Assembly (NCBI GenBank): GCA_015660865.1
Contig: JACTUA010000004.1
Coordinates: 84,111 to 148,110, forward strand
Direction: 5' to 3'
DNA from: Methanomicrobiales archaeon
Lineage (GTDB): Archaea > Halobacteriota > Methanomicrobia > Methanomicrobiales > JACTUA01
Length of the DNA stretch: 64,000 nucleotides
Below the pieces are notes generated by a model that saw nothing but the letters and a program-made list of their open reading frames with translations, did not search any database and was not told where the DNA came from. Numbering within the stretch: the first letter of the stretch is position 1; each line of letters starts with the position of its first letter. This document shows positions 26,933 to 31,884 of this stretch, piece by piece. The translations under genes and the position numbers were made by a program.

Positions 26933-27541
26933 TCATCTCACGCCCAGGATCCTGTGGAGCTGGACCTGGAACCTCACCGGCATGTTCCTTTCCAGGACCT
27001 CCCGCGCCAGGGCACCATAGTCGGACCCGAAGACAGGTGAGATGAGGTACTCCCCCTGGATAGGGTGGGATGCGATGACATCCCGGGCATAGTCCAGATC
27101 TCCGGCCCCGTCCACCACGAACTTCACCGCATCACCCGATCGGATCCGCGAAAGGAGGGAGAGATCGCTCTCCTCGCCCGAAGAGGGGCACTTCACGTCC
27201 ATGCAGATGGAGGCGTGCGCCTGGAGAGGTGAGAAGTCGATGGTCCCGTTGGTCTCGATCTCCACCTCGTAACCGGCCTCGTCGAGCTTTTTTACAAGCG
27301 CCCCCAGCTCCTCCCTCTGAAGGAAGGGCTCACCGCCTGTGATGCAGACCCGGCCGCAGGAGGAGAACTCCACGGCCTGGAAGACGTCCCCGATGGGCAC
27401 CTCCTTCCCTCCCTCACGCGCGTAGGTGGTGTCGCACCAGGAGCAGTTCAGGTTGCAGCCCGCGAGCCGGACGAAGGTGGTGATAAGCCCCTGGCTCCGC
27501 CCTTCGCCCTGGATGGAGCGGAAGATCTCACTGATCCTCAT
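26933..27541 (-). CDS. queE: 7-carboxy-7-deazaguanine synthase QueE
   Basis: 202 residues from ATG 27541, which lies inside the end of queD (14-bp overlap). It starts with RSIQGEG, carries the radical SAM CxxxCxxC motif in GCNLNCSWCDTTYA and ITGGEP. It converts carboxytetrahydropterin to CDG, on the way to preQ0 and archaeosine in tRNA. The open frame continues upstream to 27655 but that part is antiparallel overlap with queD and is not conserved-looking. Confidence 0.94.
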   Translation of the reverse strand: MRISEIFRSIQGEGRSQGLITTFVRLAGCNLNCSWCDTTYAREGGKEVPIGDVFQAVEFSSCGRVCITGGEPFLQREELGALVKKLDEAGYEVEIETNGTIDFSPLQAHASICMDVKCPSSGEESDLSLLSRIRSGDAVKFVVDGAGDLDYARDVIASHPIQGEYLISPVFGSDYGALAREVLERNMPVRFQVQLHRILGVR

Positions 27542-27941
27542 AGACCTGTTCTGCGCAGCATGTGTCGGACTCCCAGACCCGGATCCGCACCACCCGTGCC
27601 CCGGTACCGCCGAGCTTGCACTCCTTGTCGAGCAGCTTCCGTATCTCCCCTGCAAGAACCTCGCTCGATGGATCCCCGTCCGTGGTCACCACGGGCTGGA
27701 ACTTCCCGAGGCAGGCGATCATGGGATCCTTGCGGTTCAGGATCACCTGGTGGTCGAACCGCTCGACGACATCCCGGATGACATTGAAGTCCACCAGGAT
27801 GCCGGTCTCCACGTCGATCTCCCCCGCGAGCCAGATCTCCACCCTCCAGCGGTGGCCATGGAGGTTCCGGCACTTCCCTTCGTAATGGAGGAGCCGGTGG
27901 GACGCGTCGAACGAGACCTCCTTGTAGATCCTGGTCTCCAT
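27528..27941 (-). CDS. queD: 6-carboxytetrahydropterin synthase QueD
   Basis: 137 residues from ATG 27941. Zinc histidines are in FDASHRL and NLHGHRW, and the catalytic cysteine is in GKCRNLHGH. Converts dihydroneopterin triphosphate to CPH4, the substrate of QueE. It has its own promoter (TATA-like CTTATATCCC near 27962-27971). Upstream in-frame codons to 28040 fall in the A+T-rich spacer and are rejected. QueC is not in the window. Confidence 0.94.
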   Translation of the reverse strand: METRIYKEVSFDASHRLLHYEGKCRNLHGHRWRVEIWLAGEIDVETGILVDFNVIRDVVERFDHQVILNRKDPMIACLGKFQPVVTTDGDPSSEVLAGEIRKLLDKECKLGGTGARVVRIRVWESDTCCAEQVYEDQ

Positions 27942-28056
27942 CCCTTTATGATAGGTGTATTGGGATATAAGATCTAACCCTCGATTTATCGTTGGCAAAT
28001 AAGCGCGGACGATATTCTTATTATTACAGCAAATGACCACAATGAGTTAAACCAAC

Positions 28057-28725
28057 ATGGAAATCAATCAACAAAGACGGCACAAATTTTCAAGATCAGT
28101 TATCCTGTGGTCTAGGAAGCACCGTAGGCATTTTGCATGGAGATCTCGGCGGACACCCTATAGGATATTTATTGCCGAGACCATTTTACGCAGAACCACA
28201 AGCAAAGCTGCAGGTAGAGTTTTCAACAAAATAATTCGTAAATATCCATCGATACATCGCCTCGCTAGAAGTTCTAGTGAAGAGCTTTCCGAAGACCTAA
28301 GACCAATTGGCTTGTATTATCAAAGGTCAATCGGACTTATTCAAGCAGCAAAATTTATTGAAGAGAGGCATTGCGGCAATTTTCCGAAGACCCTTGAGGA
28401 GCTTTTAAAAGTCCCTCATATTGGGGAATACGCCGCGAGGTGCATTCTTTCATTTGGAATGGGGGATCCTGTTCCTGTCGTCGATTCCAATGTTATCAGG
28501 GTAACATCCCGGGTTTTCAGAGACATATTAGGGGAACAGCCATCTGTGAAACAGGTCATAGAATTTCTATCTGGAATAATCCCCCAGAAAGACCATCAAC
28601 TCCTTAATTACGGGTTAATTGACTTAGGAGCACTTGTTTGCACGTATCGTTCATGCAATTCTCAGAAATGTCCAGTTTCGGGGATATGCGAATTTAAGAA
28701 CACGTCCTGTTTAATCTCAGATTGA
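28057..28725 (+). CDS. HhH-GPD DNA glycosylase, Mig-type T/G mismatch repair enzyme of an R-M system
   Basis: 222 residues with the EndoIII/MutY fold: ETILRRTT (41-48), helix-hairpin-helix VPHIGEYAA (119-127), catalytic Asp143 in VVDSNVIRV, and C-terminal Fe-S cysteines 195, 200, 205, 211. Tyr125 stands where EndoIII has its catalytic Lys, exactly as in Mig.MthI, the thymine-DNA glycosylase next to a C5-methylase in Methanothermobacter. It should remove T from T:G pairs made by deamination of 5-methylcytosine. Cysteine spacing is C-x4-C-x4-C-x5-C instead of the usual C-x6-C-x2-C-x5-C. First gene of the A+T-rich island; a TATA-like TTCTTATTA lies near 28015-28023. Confidence 0.88.
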   Translation: MEINQQRRHKFSRSVILWSRKHRRHFAWRSRRTPYRIFIAETILRRTTSKAAGRVFNKIIRKYPSIHRLARSSSEELSEDLRPIGLYYQRSIGLIQAAKFIEERHCGNFPKTLEELLKVPHIGEYAARCILSFGMGDPVPVVDSNVIRVTSRVFRDILGEQPSVKQVIEFLSGIIPQKDHQLLNYGLIDLGALVCTYRSCNSQKCPVSGICEFKNTSCLISD

Positions 28726-28802
28726 TACTTTCACATTCCACATCGCAATGATTGAATAGTCACGAGGAGATTTGTAATCATAGGAAGGGGTTCCCCTGGC
28801 TG

Positions 28803-30191
28803 GTGGTCCTGTTGCACAGAAAATTTAAAGTCGTTTCTCTGTTTTCAGGTGCGATGGGTCTGGACCTCGGAGTCGAATCAACAGGGCGATTTAAAGTCGT
28901 CGCTTGTGTTGAAAAAGAACCTGTTTTTGTTGAGACTATCAGACAGAACTTACAAGTAGGGAGACTCTACTCCGGGTTAAAAGTTTATGAAACTGACATC
29001 AATAACTTGAGCCCCGAAGAAGTCTTAAATGACCTCGAAATATCCCCAGGCGACATTGATCTTCTTATTGGAGGCCCTCCTTGTCAGTCGTTCAGTACGG
29101 CAGGAAGACGGAGAACCGTACAAGATACTCGGGGAACCCTCCTTTGGCAATACCTCAAGTTTATCGAGGGAATGCTCCCACGGTTTTTCCTGATGGAGAA
29201 TGTTCGTGGACTATTGTCAGCCGCGATTCATCATAGACCAATATCGAACCGGCCTGAAAAAGGTGGTCCCCCGCTAGCGCCAGACGAGAGGCCAGGGTCA
29301 GTTATTAAGCTCTTTGCCAAAGACCTTCAACAAATCAAAGGAGGAGCTTATCACATGGACTGTTTTGAGGTCAACGCCGTAAATTATGGCGCACCTCAAC
29401 TAAGAGAGCGAGCGCTATTCATCGGAAATAGGTATAATATTCAAGTAAATTTCCCTGATCCGACCCATGGTAGCCCTTCTGATATGGCCTCTCATCAACA
29501 ACATCTCCCGGGTCGTAAAATTAAACCGCTAATTCCATGGAGAACCTTGGGGAATGCAATTGGGGATCTTCAAGAAGGTAACCCCATTATCATGGATTTT
29601 AGCCCTAGGAAAAAGGAATACCTCTCAATGGTCCCCCCTGGCTCAAATTGGAGGAGCCTCCCTGTTGACATCCAAAAAGAGTCCATGGGCAAAGCTTGGA
29701 CTGCAAAAGGTGGCCGTTCAGGATGGTGGAGACGTTTAAGCTATGACCTCCCGTGCCCGACCCTTATTACAATGCCAAATCATGCAGGGACATCACTCTG
29801 CCATCCTAAAAACGTTAGGGCATTGACCCTGAGGGAGTACGCTCGGATTCAGGAATTCCCAGATGACTGGGAATTCTCTGGGACACCCGCACAACAATAT
29901 GCGCAAGTTGGAAATGCTGTGCCTCTTCGTTTGGGAACAGTTGCGGGAAATGTTATCGCCCGAGCGCTTGATGATCTCATAGATAAAAACTATATTATAA
30001 ACCCGGCGCCGATTCCGAAGTACCGAGTAATTTATGTTCAATCACATATTCGTACACGTAAGTGGTTCAAAGAAGGGAAAACATACGTGTGGAGTGATGG
30101 TTGTGAGAATGGTAATACGAAATATCCTACCCCTCGGACTAAAAGGAAAACACGGCAGATGCTAGCCACGAGGGTTGCTTATGCCAAGTGA
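28803..30191 (+). CDS. DNA (cytosine-5) methyltransferase of a type II R-M system
   Basis: About 462 residues from GTG 28803 (GGAAGGGG lies about 13 bp before it); TTG 28812 or TTG 28752 are alternatives, and all precede motif I. Motifs in order: VSLFSGAMGLDLGVE (I), GGPPCQSFSTAGRR (IV, catalytic Cys), FLMENVRG (VI), PQLRERALFIG (VIII), a target-recognition region of about 150 residues, then TLREYARIQEFP (IX) and QVGNAVPLRLG (X). It methylates cytosine C5 in the site cut by the neighbouring enzyme; the site cannot be read from sequence. The 3' end overlaps the endonuclease gene by 11 bp. Confidence 0.95.
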   Translation: MVLLHRKFKVVSLFSGAMGLDLGVESTGRFKVVACVEKEPVFVETIRQNLQVGRLYSGLKVYETDINNLSPEEVLNDLEISPGDIDLLIGGPPCQSFSTAGRRRTVQDTRGTLLWQYLKFIEGMLPRFFLMENVRGLLSAAIHHRPISNRPEKGGPPLAPDERPGSVIKLFAKDLQQIKGGAYHMDCFEVNAVNYGAPQLRERALFIGNRYNIQVNFPDPTHGSPSDMASHQQHLPGRKIKPLIPWRTLGNAIGDLQEGNPIIMDFSPRKKEYLSMVPPGSNWRSLPVDIQKESMGKAWTAKGGRSGWWRRLSYDLPCPTLITMPNHAGTSLCHPKNVRALTLREYARIQEFPDDWEFSGTPAQQYAQVGNAVPLRLGTVAGNVIARALDDLIDKNYIINPAPIPKYRVIYVQSHIRTRKWFKEGKTYVWSDGCENGNTKYPTPRTKRKTRQMLATRVAYAK

Positions 30192-31281
30192 TAACAGACA
30201 AAAAAACCTATATAAAATCTTAAAAGCACAAAAACACTTTTTCTCATCGGATGAAATCGCGAATTATTTCCGGGACATCGACAGAACGAGAATTGATAAT
30301 TTGGCGTCCCGAATTTCTGCGTATGTTGAAGTCTTCATGCCAAAAACTTTGAAGAAAAAAAAGACGTTACGGGATTACAAAACTAATCCATATGTTTTAA
30401 TGACTTCAGCAAACGTTATGGGCATTGATAATGAAAGAGTTTTAGCCGACTTCCTTTTTAACACCAAGTTCTATATGGGCCTCGAGACTTCTTTCGGGAA
30501 GTTAATAGAAGCTGCGTTTACAGATCAATACCCAATAATCGGAGAGAATAAATGGACAACCCCAATCGAAAAAGAAACCGAGTTTGCAGGGTTAGAGGGT
30601 CTTAGTACCGAGGAAAAAGCGAGGCAACGTAAAAATTCTATTTGGAGAGAGATTGATAAGTCAGTAGTAATAGGAAATCGACGGTTCATTCTCAGCATTA
30701 AAAGTGGTCCCAATAATATTAACGATACTCAAGTTGCAGCGATGACTGATGCAATAATATCACACCACAAAGACTGGGCACTTGCGACGCATGCAACATA
30801 CCCTGGTAGTTTATTGCTCGATATTGTAATTGGCATCTCTTACGGTACTGACCAGACCACGAATAACAAAGAGAACCAGATCCTTGTTAAGCTCCTCGAT
30901 AGCGGGTTCATAGAAGAAGATCGTGAATCAAAGCCTGGCGTGCTCATAGATCAAACAACACATACTATCCGTGTCTATCGAGTTATTGGAAGGGACTTTT
31001 GGGCATTTTTGGGAAACCCAATAACGCCGAACACGGCCCAGCACGTGTTTCTCGAAGCTTTATTAGCCTTAGTTAAGGCCCTGAACGTAAGCAGGGAAAG
31101 AATGGGCCTCGAAGATAAAATAGAACATAAAATTCAAACCTTAGCTCATGCCTTGGAAACCCTCCAGATCTCGAGGGGAGCATTACCCTCTTGGGTAATA
31201 GATGCCTATAGTGAAGACGAATTGTTTTGGCTTACGAAAGCGATTAGCTCCTTCTATGATGAAGAAAGATCCCGACATTAG
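30181..31281 (+). CDS. Type II restriction endonuclease (PmeII-family-like)
   Basis: 366 residues from ATG 30181; a TTG six bases upstream is also in frame. The N-terminal half is helical and Lys-rich, the middle holds a likely PD-(D/E)xK-type core with Asp in REIDKSV and the strand RRFILSIKSGPNNIND. The SGP(N)NIN segment recalls the PmeII family of restriction enzymes, which I recognise with moderate certainty. Position directly after, and overlapping, a C5-methyltransferase strongly supports the cognate role. The usual acidic residue before xK appears to be Ser (S-I-K). Confidence 0.8.
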   Translation: MPSDNRQKNLYKILKAQKHFFSSDEIANYFRDIDRTRIDNLASRISAYVEVFMPKTLKKKKTLRDYKTNPYVLMTSANVMGIDNERVLADFLFNTKFYMGLETSFGKLIEAAFTDQYPIIGENKWTTPIEKETEFAGLEGLSTEEKARQRKNSIWREIDKSVVIGNRRFILSIKSGPNNINDTQVAAMTDAIISHHKDWALATHATYPGSLLLDIVIGISYGTDQTTNNKENQILVKLLDSGFIEEDRESKPGVLIDQTTHTIRVYRVIGRDFWAFLGNPITPNTAQHVFLEALLALVKALNVSRERMGLEDKIEHKIQTLAHALETLQISRGALPSWVIDAYSEDELFWLTKAISSFYDEERSRH

Positions 31282-31370
31282 TTTATGAATTTTGGACCTC
31301 GCGAAAACGGTAACTCGATCTCTTACATCAGAACACCAATAATTAGCCCGTCGTCCCGAACCCCGCCGCA

Positions 31371-31378
31371 ATATATAA
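31371..31378 (+). promoter_or_regulatory. Strong TATA box of the rpsL-rpsG-fusA operon
   Basis: ATATATAA preceded by a purine-flanked CCGCA element and placed to start transcription near 31398-31402, only about 8 nt before a small upstream ORF. Confidence 0.7.
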
Positions 31379-31408
31379 ATTCTCCCCGCGCGAAAATTTA
31401 GACCTCAC

Positions 31409-31456
31409 ATGCTCAGGATCCGAATCCTGAAGAAACGATTGTACGGGGACATCTGA
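31409..31456 (+). CDS. Putative 15-codon leader peptide upstream of rpsL
   Basis: ATG at 31409 begins a 15-residue basic peptide ([15 protein letters not shown]) whose TGA overlaps the rpsL ATG as TGATG. The predicted transcription start is about 8 nt before this ATG, so the mRNA would be nearly leaderless for the small ORF, and rpsL, which lacks a good ribosome-binding site, could be translated by termination-reinitiation. Codons 2-7 form a perfect hairpin, TCAGGAT-CCGA-ATCCTGA (31413-31430). It may instead be chance. Confidence 0.45.
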
Positions 31457-31884
31457 TGGGACTGGGTAAATTCGCAGCAAGAAAACTCGCGCGTGACTCG
31501 AAAAAGTTCCGGTGGAGCGACAAGCGCTACGCGCGACGCCTCCTCCACCTTGACGAGAAGGCCGATCCCCTGGAGGGGTCTCCCCAGGCGCGGGGGATCG
31601 TGCTCGAGAAGATCGGGATCGAGGCCAAGCAGCCCAACTCCGCCATCCGGAAGGCGGTGCGGGTGCAGCTGATCAAGAACGGGCGGCAGGTCACCGCCTT
31701 TTGCACGGGCGACGGCGCCATCAACTACATCGACGAGCACGATGAGGTGGAGATCGAGGGGATCGGCGGCAGGCTCGGGCGTTCCATGGGGGACATCCCG
31801 GGAGTCCGCTACGTGGTGACCAAGGTGAACAACGTCTCTCTCCGCGAGCTCGTCATCGGCAGGAAGGAGAAGCCGCGCAGGTGA
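31456..31884 (+). CDS. rpsL: 30S ribosomal protein S12 (uS12)
   Basis: 142 residues, archaeal length. Characteristic sequence includes [17 protein letters not shown] and [14 protein letters not shown] near the decoding-site loops. First large gene of the rpsL-rpsG-fusA operon. Here the usual archaeal upstream neighbours (RNA polymerase genes, L30e, nusA) are absent and the A+T-rich island lies directly ahead. Confidence 0.98.

What the first reader, a model, noticed from the sequence alone, without database searches (positions are those of the whole stretch)
28057..31281. Restriction-modification island carrying its own T/G mismatch glycosylase
Three same-strand genes in a clearly A+T-rich segment encode a Mig/EndoIII-type glycosylase, a C5-cytosine methyltransferase and a type II endonuclease, the last two overlapping by 11 bp. 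C5-methylation makes T:G mismatches by deamination, and a dedicated glycosylase is known beside a C5-methylase in Methanothermobacter (Mig.MthI with M.MthTI). Linkage into one unit with the endonuclease suggests a mobile modify-cut-repair module in Methanomicrobiales. Vsr endonuclease, the bacterial solution, is absent.
Basis: partly seen in the sequence, partly recalled or inferred. Interest (0 to 1): 0.75.

Follow-up and report, generated by a model that had tools for sequence, protein, structure and literature searches.

The report
Restriction island with Mig-type repair glycosylase
An archaeon carries an acquired three-gene DNA-defence island (a DNA-marking enzyme, a DNA-cutting enzyme and a repair enzyme predicted to undo the mutations that the marking causes); it is a new example of a pairing already known from one archaeal plasmid, and related genes show that this repair enzyme and the unrelated Vsr nuclease take turns in the same role.

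Summary
Window 28057-31281 is an A+T-rich insertion (43.8% GC, background 63.2%) between queD and rpsL, holding a 222-aa HhH-GPD glycosylase, the genome's only C5-cytosine methyltransferase (M), and an EcoO109I-family endonuclease (R) overlapping M by 11 bp. The glycosylase is of the Mig (thymine-DNA glycosylase) class, not MutY or EndoIII: best sequence and fold match is Mig.MthI (1KEA), with Mig's catalytic Glu, Tyr and Asp.

The "mobile modify-cut-repair module" is only partly supported. M+R is what travels: of 17 loci with this M subfamily, 12 have no linked repair gene, 2 have Vsr and 3 (window included) have Mig; the other two Mig loci lack R and lie by Druantia genes. Mig is an optional accessory that alternates with Vsr. 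In the phylum, 23 of 30 Mig-like genes lie within 1.5 kb of a C5 methyltransferase, against 0 of 20 EndoIII/MutY controls, including DISARM, Druantia, Mza and EcoRII loci. Vsr is not a bacteria-only solution: 15 of 100 related archaeal genomes have it.

Verdict: new member of a known kind. T:G activity, 5mC and the recognition site are untested.

The parts
28057..28725 (+). Mig-class HhH-GPD glycosylase, 222 aa, predicted monofunctional T(U):G glycosylase; E41, Y125, D143 match Mig.MthI E42, Y126, D144; Ser and Tyr at the positions of Mig.MthI A50 and L187; Cys spacing C-X4-C-X4-C-X5-C
28752..30191 (+). C5-cytosine methyltransferase (motifs PPCQ, ENV, QLRER visible); start at TTG 28752 or more likely TTG 28812; target-recognition region 68-74% identical to most relatives
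30181..31281 (+). Type II restriction endonuclease, EcoO109I family, 366 aa from ATG; overlaps the methyltransferase by 11 bp
27975..28056 (.). Left junction of the insertion (approximate): A+T-rich DNA beginning beyond the PTPS (queD) promoter-like ATATAAG near 27965-27971
   Evidence: exact point inferred
31282..31368 (.). Right junction region (approximate), ending before the rpsL TATA-like box
   Evidence: exact point inferred
31370..31379 (+). TATA-like AATATATAAA upstream of rpsL, also present upstream of rpsL in relatives without the island
27528..27944 (-). Left flanking gene, PTPS/QueD (6-pyruvoyl tetrahydropterin synthase family)
31456..31884 (+). Right flanking gene, ribosomal protein S12 (rpsL)

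Best explanation
A horizontally acquired type II restriction-modification system of the EcoO109I kind, with a Mig-class thymine/uracil mismatch glycosylase as an optional repair accessory. The methyltransferase would put 5-methylcytosine in its site; the endonuclease would cut the same site when unmethylated; where a 5mC deaminates to T, the glycosylase would remove the T opposite G, and host enzymes (Nfo AP endonuclease, polymerase, ligase) would restore C:G. The glycosylase would do by base excision what Vsr does by nicking. Shown here: gene content and order, the class of each protein, acquisition at an otherwise empty site, association of Mig with C5 methyltransferases, alternation of Mig and Vsr beside the same methyltransferase subfamily, and presence of Nfo. 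Inferred: the enzymatic activities, a shared recognition site of M and R, and the repair role.
For: Mig class: best PDB sequence match 1KEA, 2.6e-30; AlphaFold model pLDDT 94.5 with 1KEA as best fold match, TM 0.90/0.92, rmsd 1.4; Glu, Tyr and Asp of Mig present, no EndoIII Lys, no MutY Val/Gln pair (role of these positions from PMC2714593); MutY and EndoIII controls form separate supported clades. Association: C5 methyltransferase within 1.5 kb of 23 of 30 Mig-like genes and 0 of 20 controls, Fisher p 2.4e-08. Alternation with Vsr beside this methyltransferase subfamily: Vsr in L012 and L014, Mig in window, G027 and G042, never both. Endonuclease: Pfam RE_EcoO109I and EcoO109I as the only significant fold match, best E 6.3e-08. 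M and R lie side by side in 12 named loci. Nfo present, NucS and Vsr absent.
Against: Most relatives of this M+R pair do without any linked repair gene, so the glycosylase is not required. Its residues at the two base-specificity positions are Ser and Tyr, not the Ala and Leu of Mig.MthI, and its second cluster cysteine is displaced, so activity cannot be taken for granted. The methyltransferase profile used in the survey was built partly from loci found through the glycosylase, although the two domains are unrelated in sequence.
Confidence: 0.82

Rival explanations
1. The glycosylase is a MutY-type adenine glycosylase or an EndoIII that happens to lie beside the R-M genes.
For: Same HhH-GPD superfamily; NCBIfam's best name is mutY, but at 146 bits against a cut-off of 286.5; MutY structures match almost as well by sequence.
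Against: No C-terminal 8-oxoG domain (222 aa), no Gln at the MutY position, Tyr in place of the EndoIII Lys; outside the MutY and EndoIII clades; the genome has other HhH-GPD genes elsewhere, among them an EndoIII-like (L001) and a MutY-like one (L003); 0 of 20 MutY/EndoIII genes lie beside a C5 methyltransferase.
Confidence: 0.06
2. The glycosylase is an effector: it damages DNA that lacks the methyl mark, or makes loss of the methyltransferase costly, as reported for the Vsr-like VsrA of Caulobacter.
For: Restriction glycosylases exist (PabI family, PMC10273834); a Vsr-like protein causes DNA damage when its methylase is lost (PMC12907096); Mig occurs in many kinds of defence locus.
Against: An intact endonuclease is present; the protein has the single-domain Mig fold; PabI resembles neither nucleases nor other glycosylases (PMC4081073); alternation with Vsr points to repair.
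Confidence: 0.08
3. The three genes are a dedicated mobile modify-cut-repair module that spreads as one unit.
For: All three are on one strand in one A+T-rich insertion; three-gene sets of other families exist: M, EcoRII endonuclease and Mig in G173, and endonuclease, M and Mig on pCALKR01.
Against: The relatives of R lack Mig; the two closest Mig+M pairs lack R; the window M is not sister to the Mig-bearing M genes; no mobility gene or repeat.
Confidence: 0.1
4. The glycosylase is a degenerate or inactive remnant.
For: Displaced second cluster Cys and Ser/Tyr at the specificity positions.
Against: Intact frame, all invariant columns of the set kept, confident fold; the same displaced Cys is kept in G027 and G042 at about 50% identity.
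Confidence: 0.06

Closest known systems
Mig.MthI with the MthTI R-M system (Methanothermobacter plasmid pFV1; gene linkage from my own knowledge, enzyme from PMC2714593)
   Same: Mig-class glycosylase beside a C5 methyltransferase of a type II R-M system in an archaeon; same catalytic residues and fold.
   Different: 28% identical over the fold alignment; Ser/Tyr at the A50/L187 positions; displaced second Cys; endonuclease of the EcoO109I family, while MthTI is related to NgoPII (PMC4081073); chromosomal.
EcoO109I restriction-modification system
   Same: Endonuclease of the same Pfam family and, by model, the same fold.
   Different: About 15-17% identical in the fold alignment; the window protein is longer; its recognition site is unknown; I know of no repair glycosylase in the EcoO109I system.
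Vsr very-short-patch repair endonuclease
   Same: Takes the same place beside the same methyltransferase subfamily in L012 and L014; same predicted purpose.
   Different: Unrelated fold; nicks the strand instead of excising a base.
PADLOC model PDLC03398 ('Type II nicking endonuclease', REase_II)
   Same: The window glycosylase matches over nearly its whole length, 1.9e-32, so the family is already catalogued as R-M-associated.
   Different: The label does not fit the chemistry expected of an HhH-GPD glycosylase without the lyase Lys; the model also hits MutY-type genes.

Membership tests
Mig-class thymine-DNA glycosylase | HhH-GPD domain, single-domain protein of about 220 aa | tested here: met
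Mig-class thymine-DNA glycosylase | Catalytic Glu42, Tyr126 and Asp144 (Mig.MthI numbering) | tested here: met
   invariant in the set
Mig-class thymine-DNA glycosylase | No MutY Val/Gln pair and no EndoIII Lys at the specificity and catalytic positions | tested here: met
   Ser, Tyr and Tyr at these positions
Mig-class thymine-DNA glycosylase | Ala50 and Leu187 exactly as in Mig.MthI | tested here: not met
   Ser and Tyr; other methyltransferase-linked members vary at both positions too (mostly Ala/Ser/Gly and Leu/Phe/Tyr/Trp), so I treat these letters as typical, not defining
Mig-class thymine-DNA glycosylase | Cluster motif C-X6-C-X2-C-X5-C | tested here: not met
   C-X4-C-X4-C-X5-C in window, G027 and G042; other members also vary. 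I treat the spacing as typical, not defining; the assignment rests on fold, active site and tree
Mig-class thymine-DNA glycosylase | T:G and U:G glycosylase activity | not testable with these tools
   needs a biochemical assay
C5-cytosine DNA methyltransferase | DNA_methylase domain with PPCQ, ENV and Q-R-R motifs | tested here: met
EcoO109I-type endonuclease | Pfam RE_EcoO109I above cut-off and EcoO109I fold | tested here: met
   29.5 bits against 22.5; 1wtd/1wte are the only hits below 0.001, with a model of pLDDT 80.8
EcoO109I-type endonuclease | PD-(D/E)XK catalytic triad | tested here: inconclusive
   E110, D159 and K174 are invariant, but the residue two before K174 is Ser, not acidic
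EcoO109I-type endonuclease | Cleavage of RGGNCCY | not testable with these tools
   the Pfam family does not fix the site
Type II R-M system | Adjacent, co-inherited R and M | tested here: met
   adjacent in window, G012 and 12 named loci
Type II R-M system | R and M act on the same site | not testable with these tools
   needs cloning or methylome data
Vsr endonuclease | PF03852-type domain in the island | tested here: not met
   none in the own genome; no Vsr ORF in the window
Self-mobile element | Integrase, target-site duplication or terminal repeats at the island | tested here: not met

The most novel reading that the evidence does not exclude
Mig-type glycosylases are a general, exchangeable counterpart of Vsr for 5mC-writing immune systems of archaea (type II R-M, DISARM, Druantia, Mza), each lineage matched to its methyltransferase, and several lineages have replaced or moved one of the four cysteine ligands of the iron-sulfur cluster.
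Probability: 0.4. Interest if true: 0.55.

Novelty: new member of a known kind. Interest (0 to 1): 0.4.

Why it matters
5mC-based defence carries a mutation cost, and the window with its relatives gives a natural comparison: the same methyltransferase subfamily with Mig, with Vsr, or with neither. That makes it testable whether a linked T:G repair enzyme lowers the cost of keeping a 5mC system. The wider pattern (Mig beside the methyltransferase of DISARM, Druantia and Mza loci) suggests that a repair gene is being overlooked in archaeal defence annotation: the 2023 survey of archaeal R-M systems has a class for Vsr and does not mention a glycosylase (PMC10609329).

Tried and rejected
Mig in viral contigs: no relative found. 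Phage records: weak matches (about 30-33%), mostly in unannotated records, not followed. Target-site duplication or inverted repeats at the junctions: none. Ordinary MutY or EndoIII: rejected by residues, tree and neighbours. NucS/EndoMS as a competing T:G pathway in the host: absent. Recognition site: not predicted; the EcoO109I family alone does not fix it, and site avoidance was not tested because the island looks recent. The idea that M and Mig were inherited together with the G027/G042 pair was rejected: the Mig genes group (100/100), but the window M is unresolved and the Mig-less G012 groups with G027/G042. A search of the held library for Mig in DISARM or Druantia found no report; the library lacks most subscription papers, so this is no proof of novelty.

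Full report
What is there. Between a PTPS/queD gene (27528-27944, minus) and rpsL (31456, plus) lies an island of about 3.3 kb with three plus-strand genes. Its GC content is 43.8%, against 63.2% with a standard deviation of 2.2% in the other 1-kb bins. Pfam names the products HhH-GPD, DNA_methylase and RE_EcoO109I, each above the curated cut-off. The overlap of methyltransferase and endonuclease is 11 bp with the ATG at 30181. The methyltransferase start is not certain: TTG 28752 or, by comparison with relatives, TTG 28812.

It was inserted. None of 13 relatives of the same family or order has the island; in 12 of them queD is the next gene upstream of rpsL, with a gap of about 160 bp in several (L053, L055, L057), and in one (L065) other short ORFs lie between. 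The TATA-like box of rpsL is present in the window as in the relatives. No repeats or duplications mark the ends. The methyltransferase and endonuclease have relatives in Pseudomonadota, Planctomycetota, Actinomycetota and archaea, a distribution that indicates horizontal spread.

The glycosylase. The best match among solved structures is 1KEA, the T:G mismatch glycosylase Mig.MthI, and an AlphaFold model (pLDDT 94.5) again finds 1KEA first (TM 0.90/0.92, rmsd 1.4). Aligned with 1KEA, it has Glu42, Tyr126 and Asp144; the EndoIII controls have Lys at 126, and the MutY controls have the QQT motif with Val or Leu at position 50 in nearly all. The importance of positions 50 and 187 comes from PMC2714593; here they are Ser and Tyr, unlike both Mig.MthI (Ala, Leu) and E. 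coli MutY (Val, Gln). A tree puts MutY and EndoIII in their own supported clades and the window gene with G027 and G042 (100/100). As Tyr replaces the EndoIII lysine, I predict a monofunctional enzyme that needs an AP endonuclease; Nfo is present in the genome.

The endonuclease. Thirteen relatives at 43-56% identity were found by a collection scan; 12 have the methyltransferase orthologue in the same locus (the 13th contig ends within the gene). The model's only significant fold matches are EcoO109I entries, with moderate model confidence (pLDDT 80.8).

Is the glycosylase part of the system? Among 17 loci of this methyltransferase subfamily (window; L006-L016 and L018; L048; G012; G027; G042), Mig is beside the methyltransferase in three (window, G027, G042), Vsr in two (L012, confirmed by PF03852; L014, found with a profile of my own), and neither in 12. 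In G027 and G042 the Mig+M pair has no endonuclease; in G027 it follows DruL-, DruE- and DruK-type genes. G012, of the same genus as these two, has M+R and no Mig. The target-recognition region is at least as conserved between members as the catalytic core (68-74% to most), which suggests one shared site. So the glycosylase is an optional accessory that alternates with Vsr, not a fixed part of a three-gene unit.

The wider pattern. A search of 393 genomes of the phylum with the PADLOC model that covers this family, followed by a methyltransferase profile, found a C5 methyltransferase in 23 of the 30 Mig-like loci returned (1.5-kb flanks) and in 0 of 20 EndoIII/MutY loci (Fisher p 2.4e-08). With longer flanks 30 of 34 loci have one, and none has a Vsr gene. 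I chose the control set from lower-ranked hits, and the methyltransferase profile was trained partly on loci found through the glycosylase; the domains are unrelated, so I do not think this explains the contrast. Neighbours checked by PADLOC or Pfam: DISARM (DrmMII, DrmA, DrmB, DrmC in L124; DrmA in L130), Druantia (DruK, DruE in L121; G027), Mza-type genes (MzaB in L128; HATPase, Z1 and DUF4420 in L125; AIPR in L145) and EcoRII (L136). Other loci listed as alike (L127, L142; L137, L144; L134, L147) were judged by eye from their sequence starts. The pairing also occurs in bacteria: Caldicellulosiruptor pCALKR01 has an annotated PLD-type endonuclease, a cytosine methyltransferase and a base-excision repair protein in a row, and Thermus plasmids have methyltransferase and glycosylase side by side.

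Vsr is present in 15 of 100 genomes of the relatives set; a C5 methyltransferase is near in 10 of the 15 Vsr loci fetched. It is therefore not a bacteria-only solution.

Novelty. A Mig glycosylase beside a C5 methyltransferase is known from Mig.MthI, and PADLOC already has a model for the family, though under the name of a nicking endonuclease. The window is a new member. What may be less known is the alternation with Vsr beside one methyltransferase subfamily and the presence in DISARM, Druantia and Mza loci; I found no report in the held library, which is incomplete.

Limits. No activity, methylation or site was measured. Whether each Mig lineage is matched to its methyltransferase is conjecture.

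Noticed in passing
window:28639-28689 (C195-C211 of the glycosylase); L087, L078: The cluster cysteines are spaced C-X4-C-X4-C-X5-C instead of C-X6-C-X2-C-X5-C; the change is shared with the G027 and G042 proteins.
   Followed up: partly
L027, L066, L079, L083, L084, L085, L090, L095: Eight Mig-like proteins have His at or next to the place of the second cluster cysteine; a His-ligated cluster in an HhH glycosylase would be unusual.
   Followed up: no
L124, L127, L130, L142: Mig-like gene directly after the C5 methyltransferase of DISARM-type loci; L124 and L130 checked with PADLOC, the others by eye.
   Followed up: partly
L039, L040, L121: Mig-like gene and C5 methyltransferase at Druantia-type loci (L040 by similarity to L039).
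   Followed up: partly
L125, L128, L137, L144, L145, L041: Mig-like gene in Mza-type loci (HATPase, Z1, DUF4420, AIPR); in L137, L144 and L145 no C5 methyltransferase was found in the fetched stretch.
   Followed up: partly
L136:4447-7428: C5 methyltransferase, EcoRII endonuclease and Mig in a row: an EcoRII-type system with Mig in the place that Vsr has beside Dcm in E. coli.
   Followed up: partly
L135: Mig-like gene in a locus with a C5 methyltransferase, a HATPase protein and a weak response-regulator match, like the two-component-like R-M loci in which Vsr was reported (PMC8011034).
   Followed up: no
PADLOC PDLC03398: A model labelled 'Type II nicking endonuclease' matches HhH-GPD glycosylases and rings in 13 of 14 control genomes, so it may mislabel MutY genes as restriction enzymes.
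   Followed up: no
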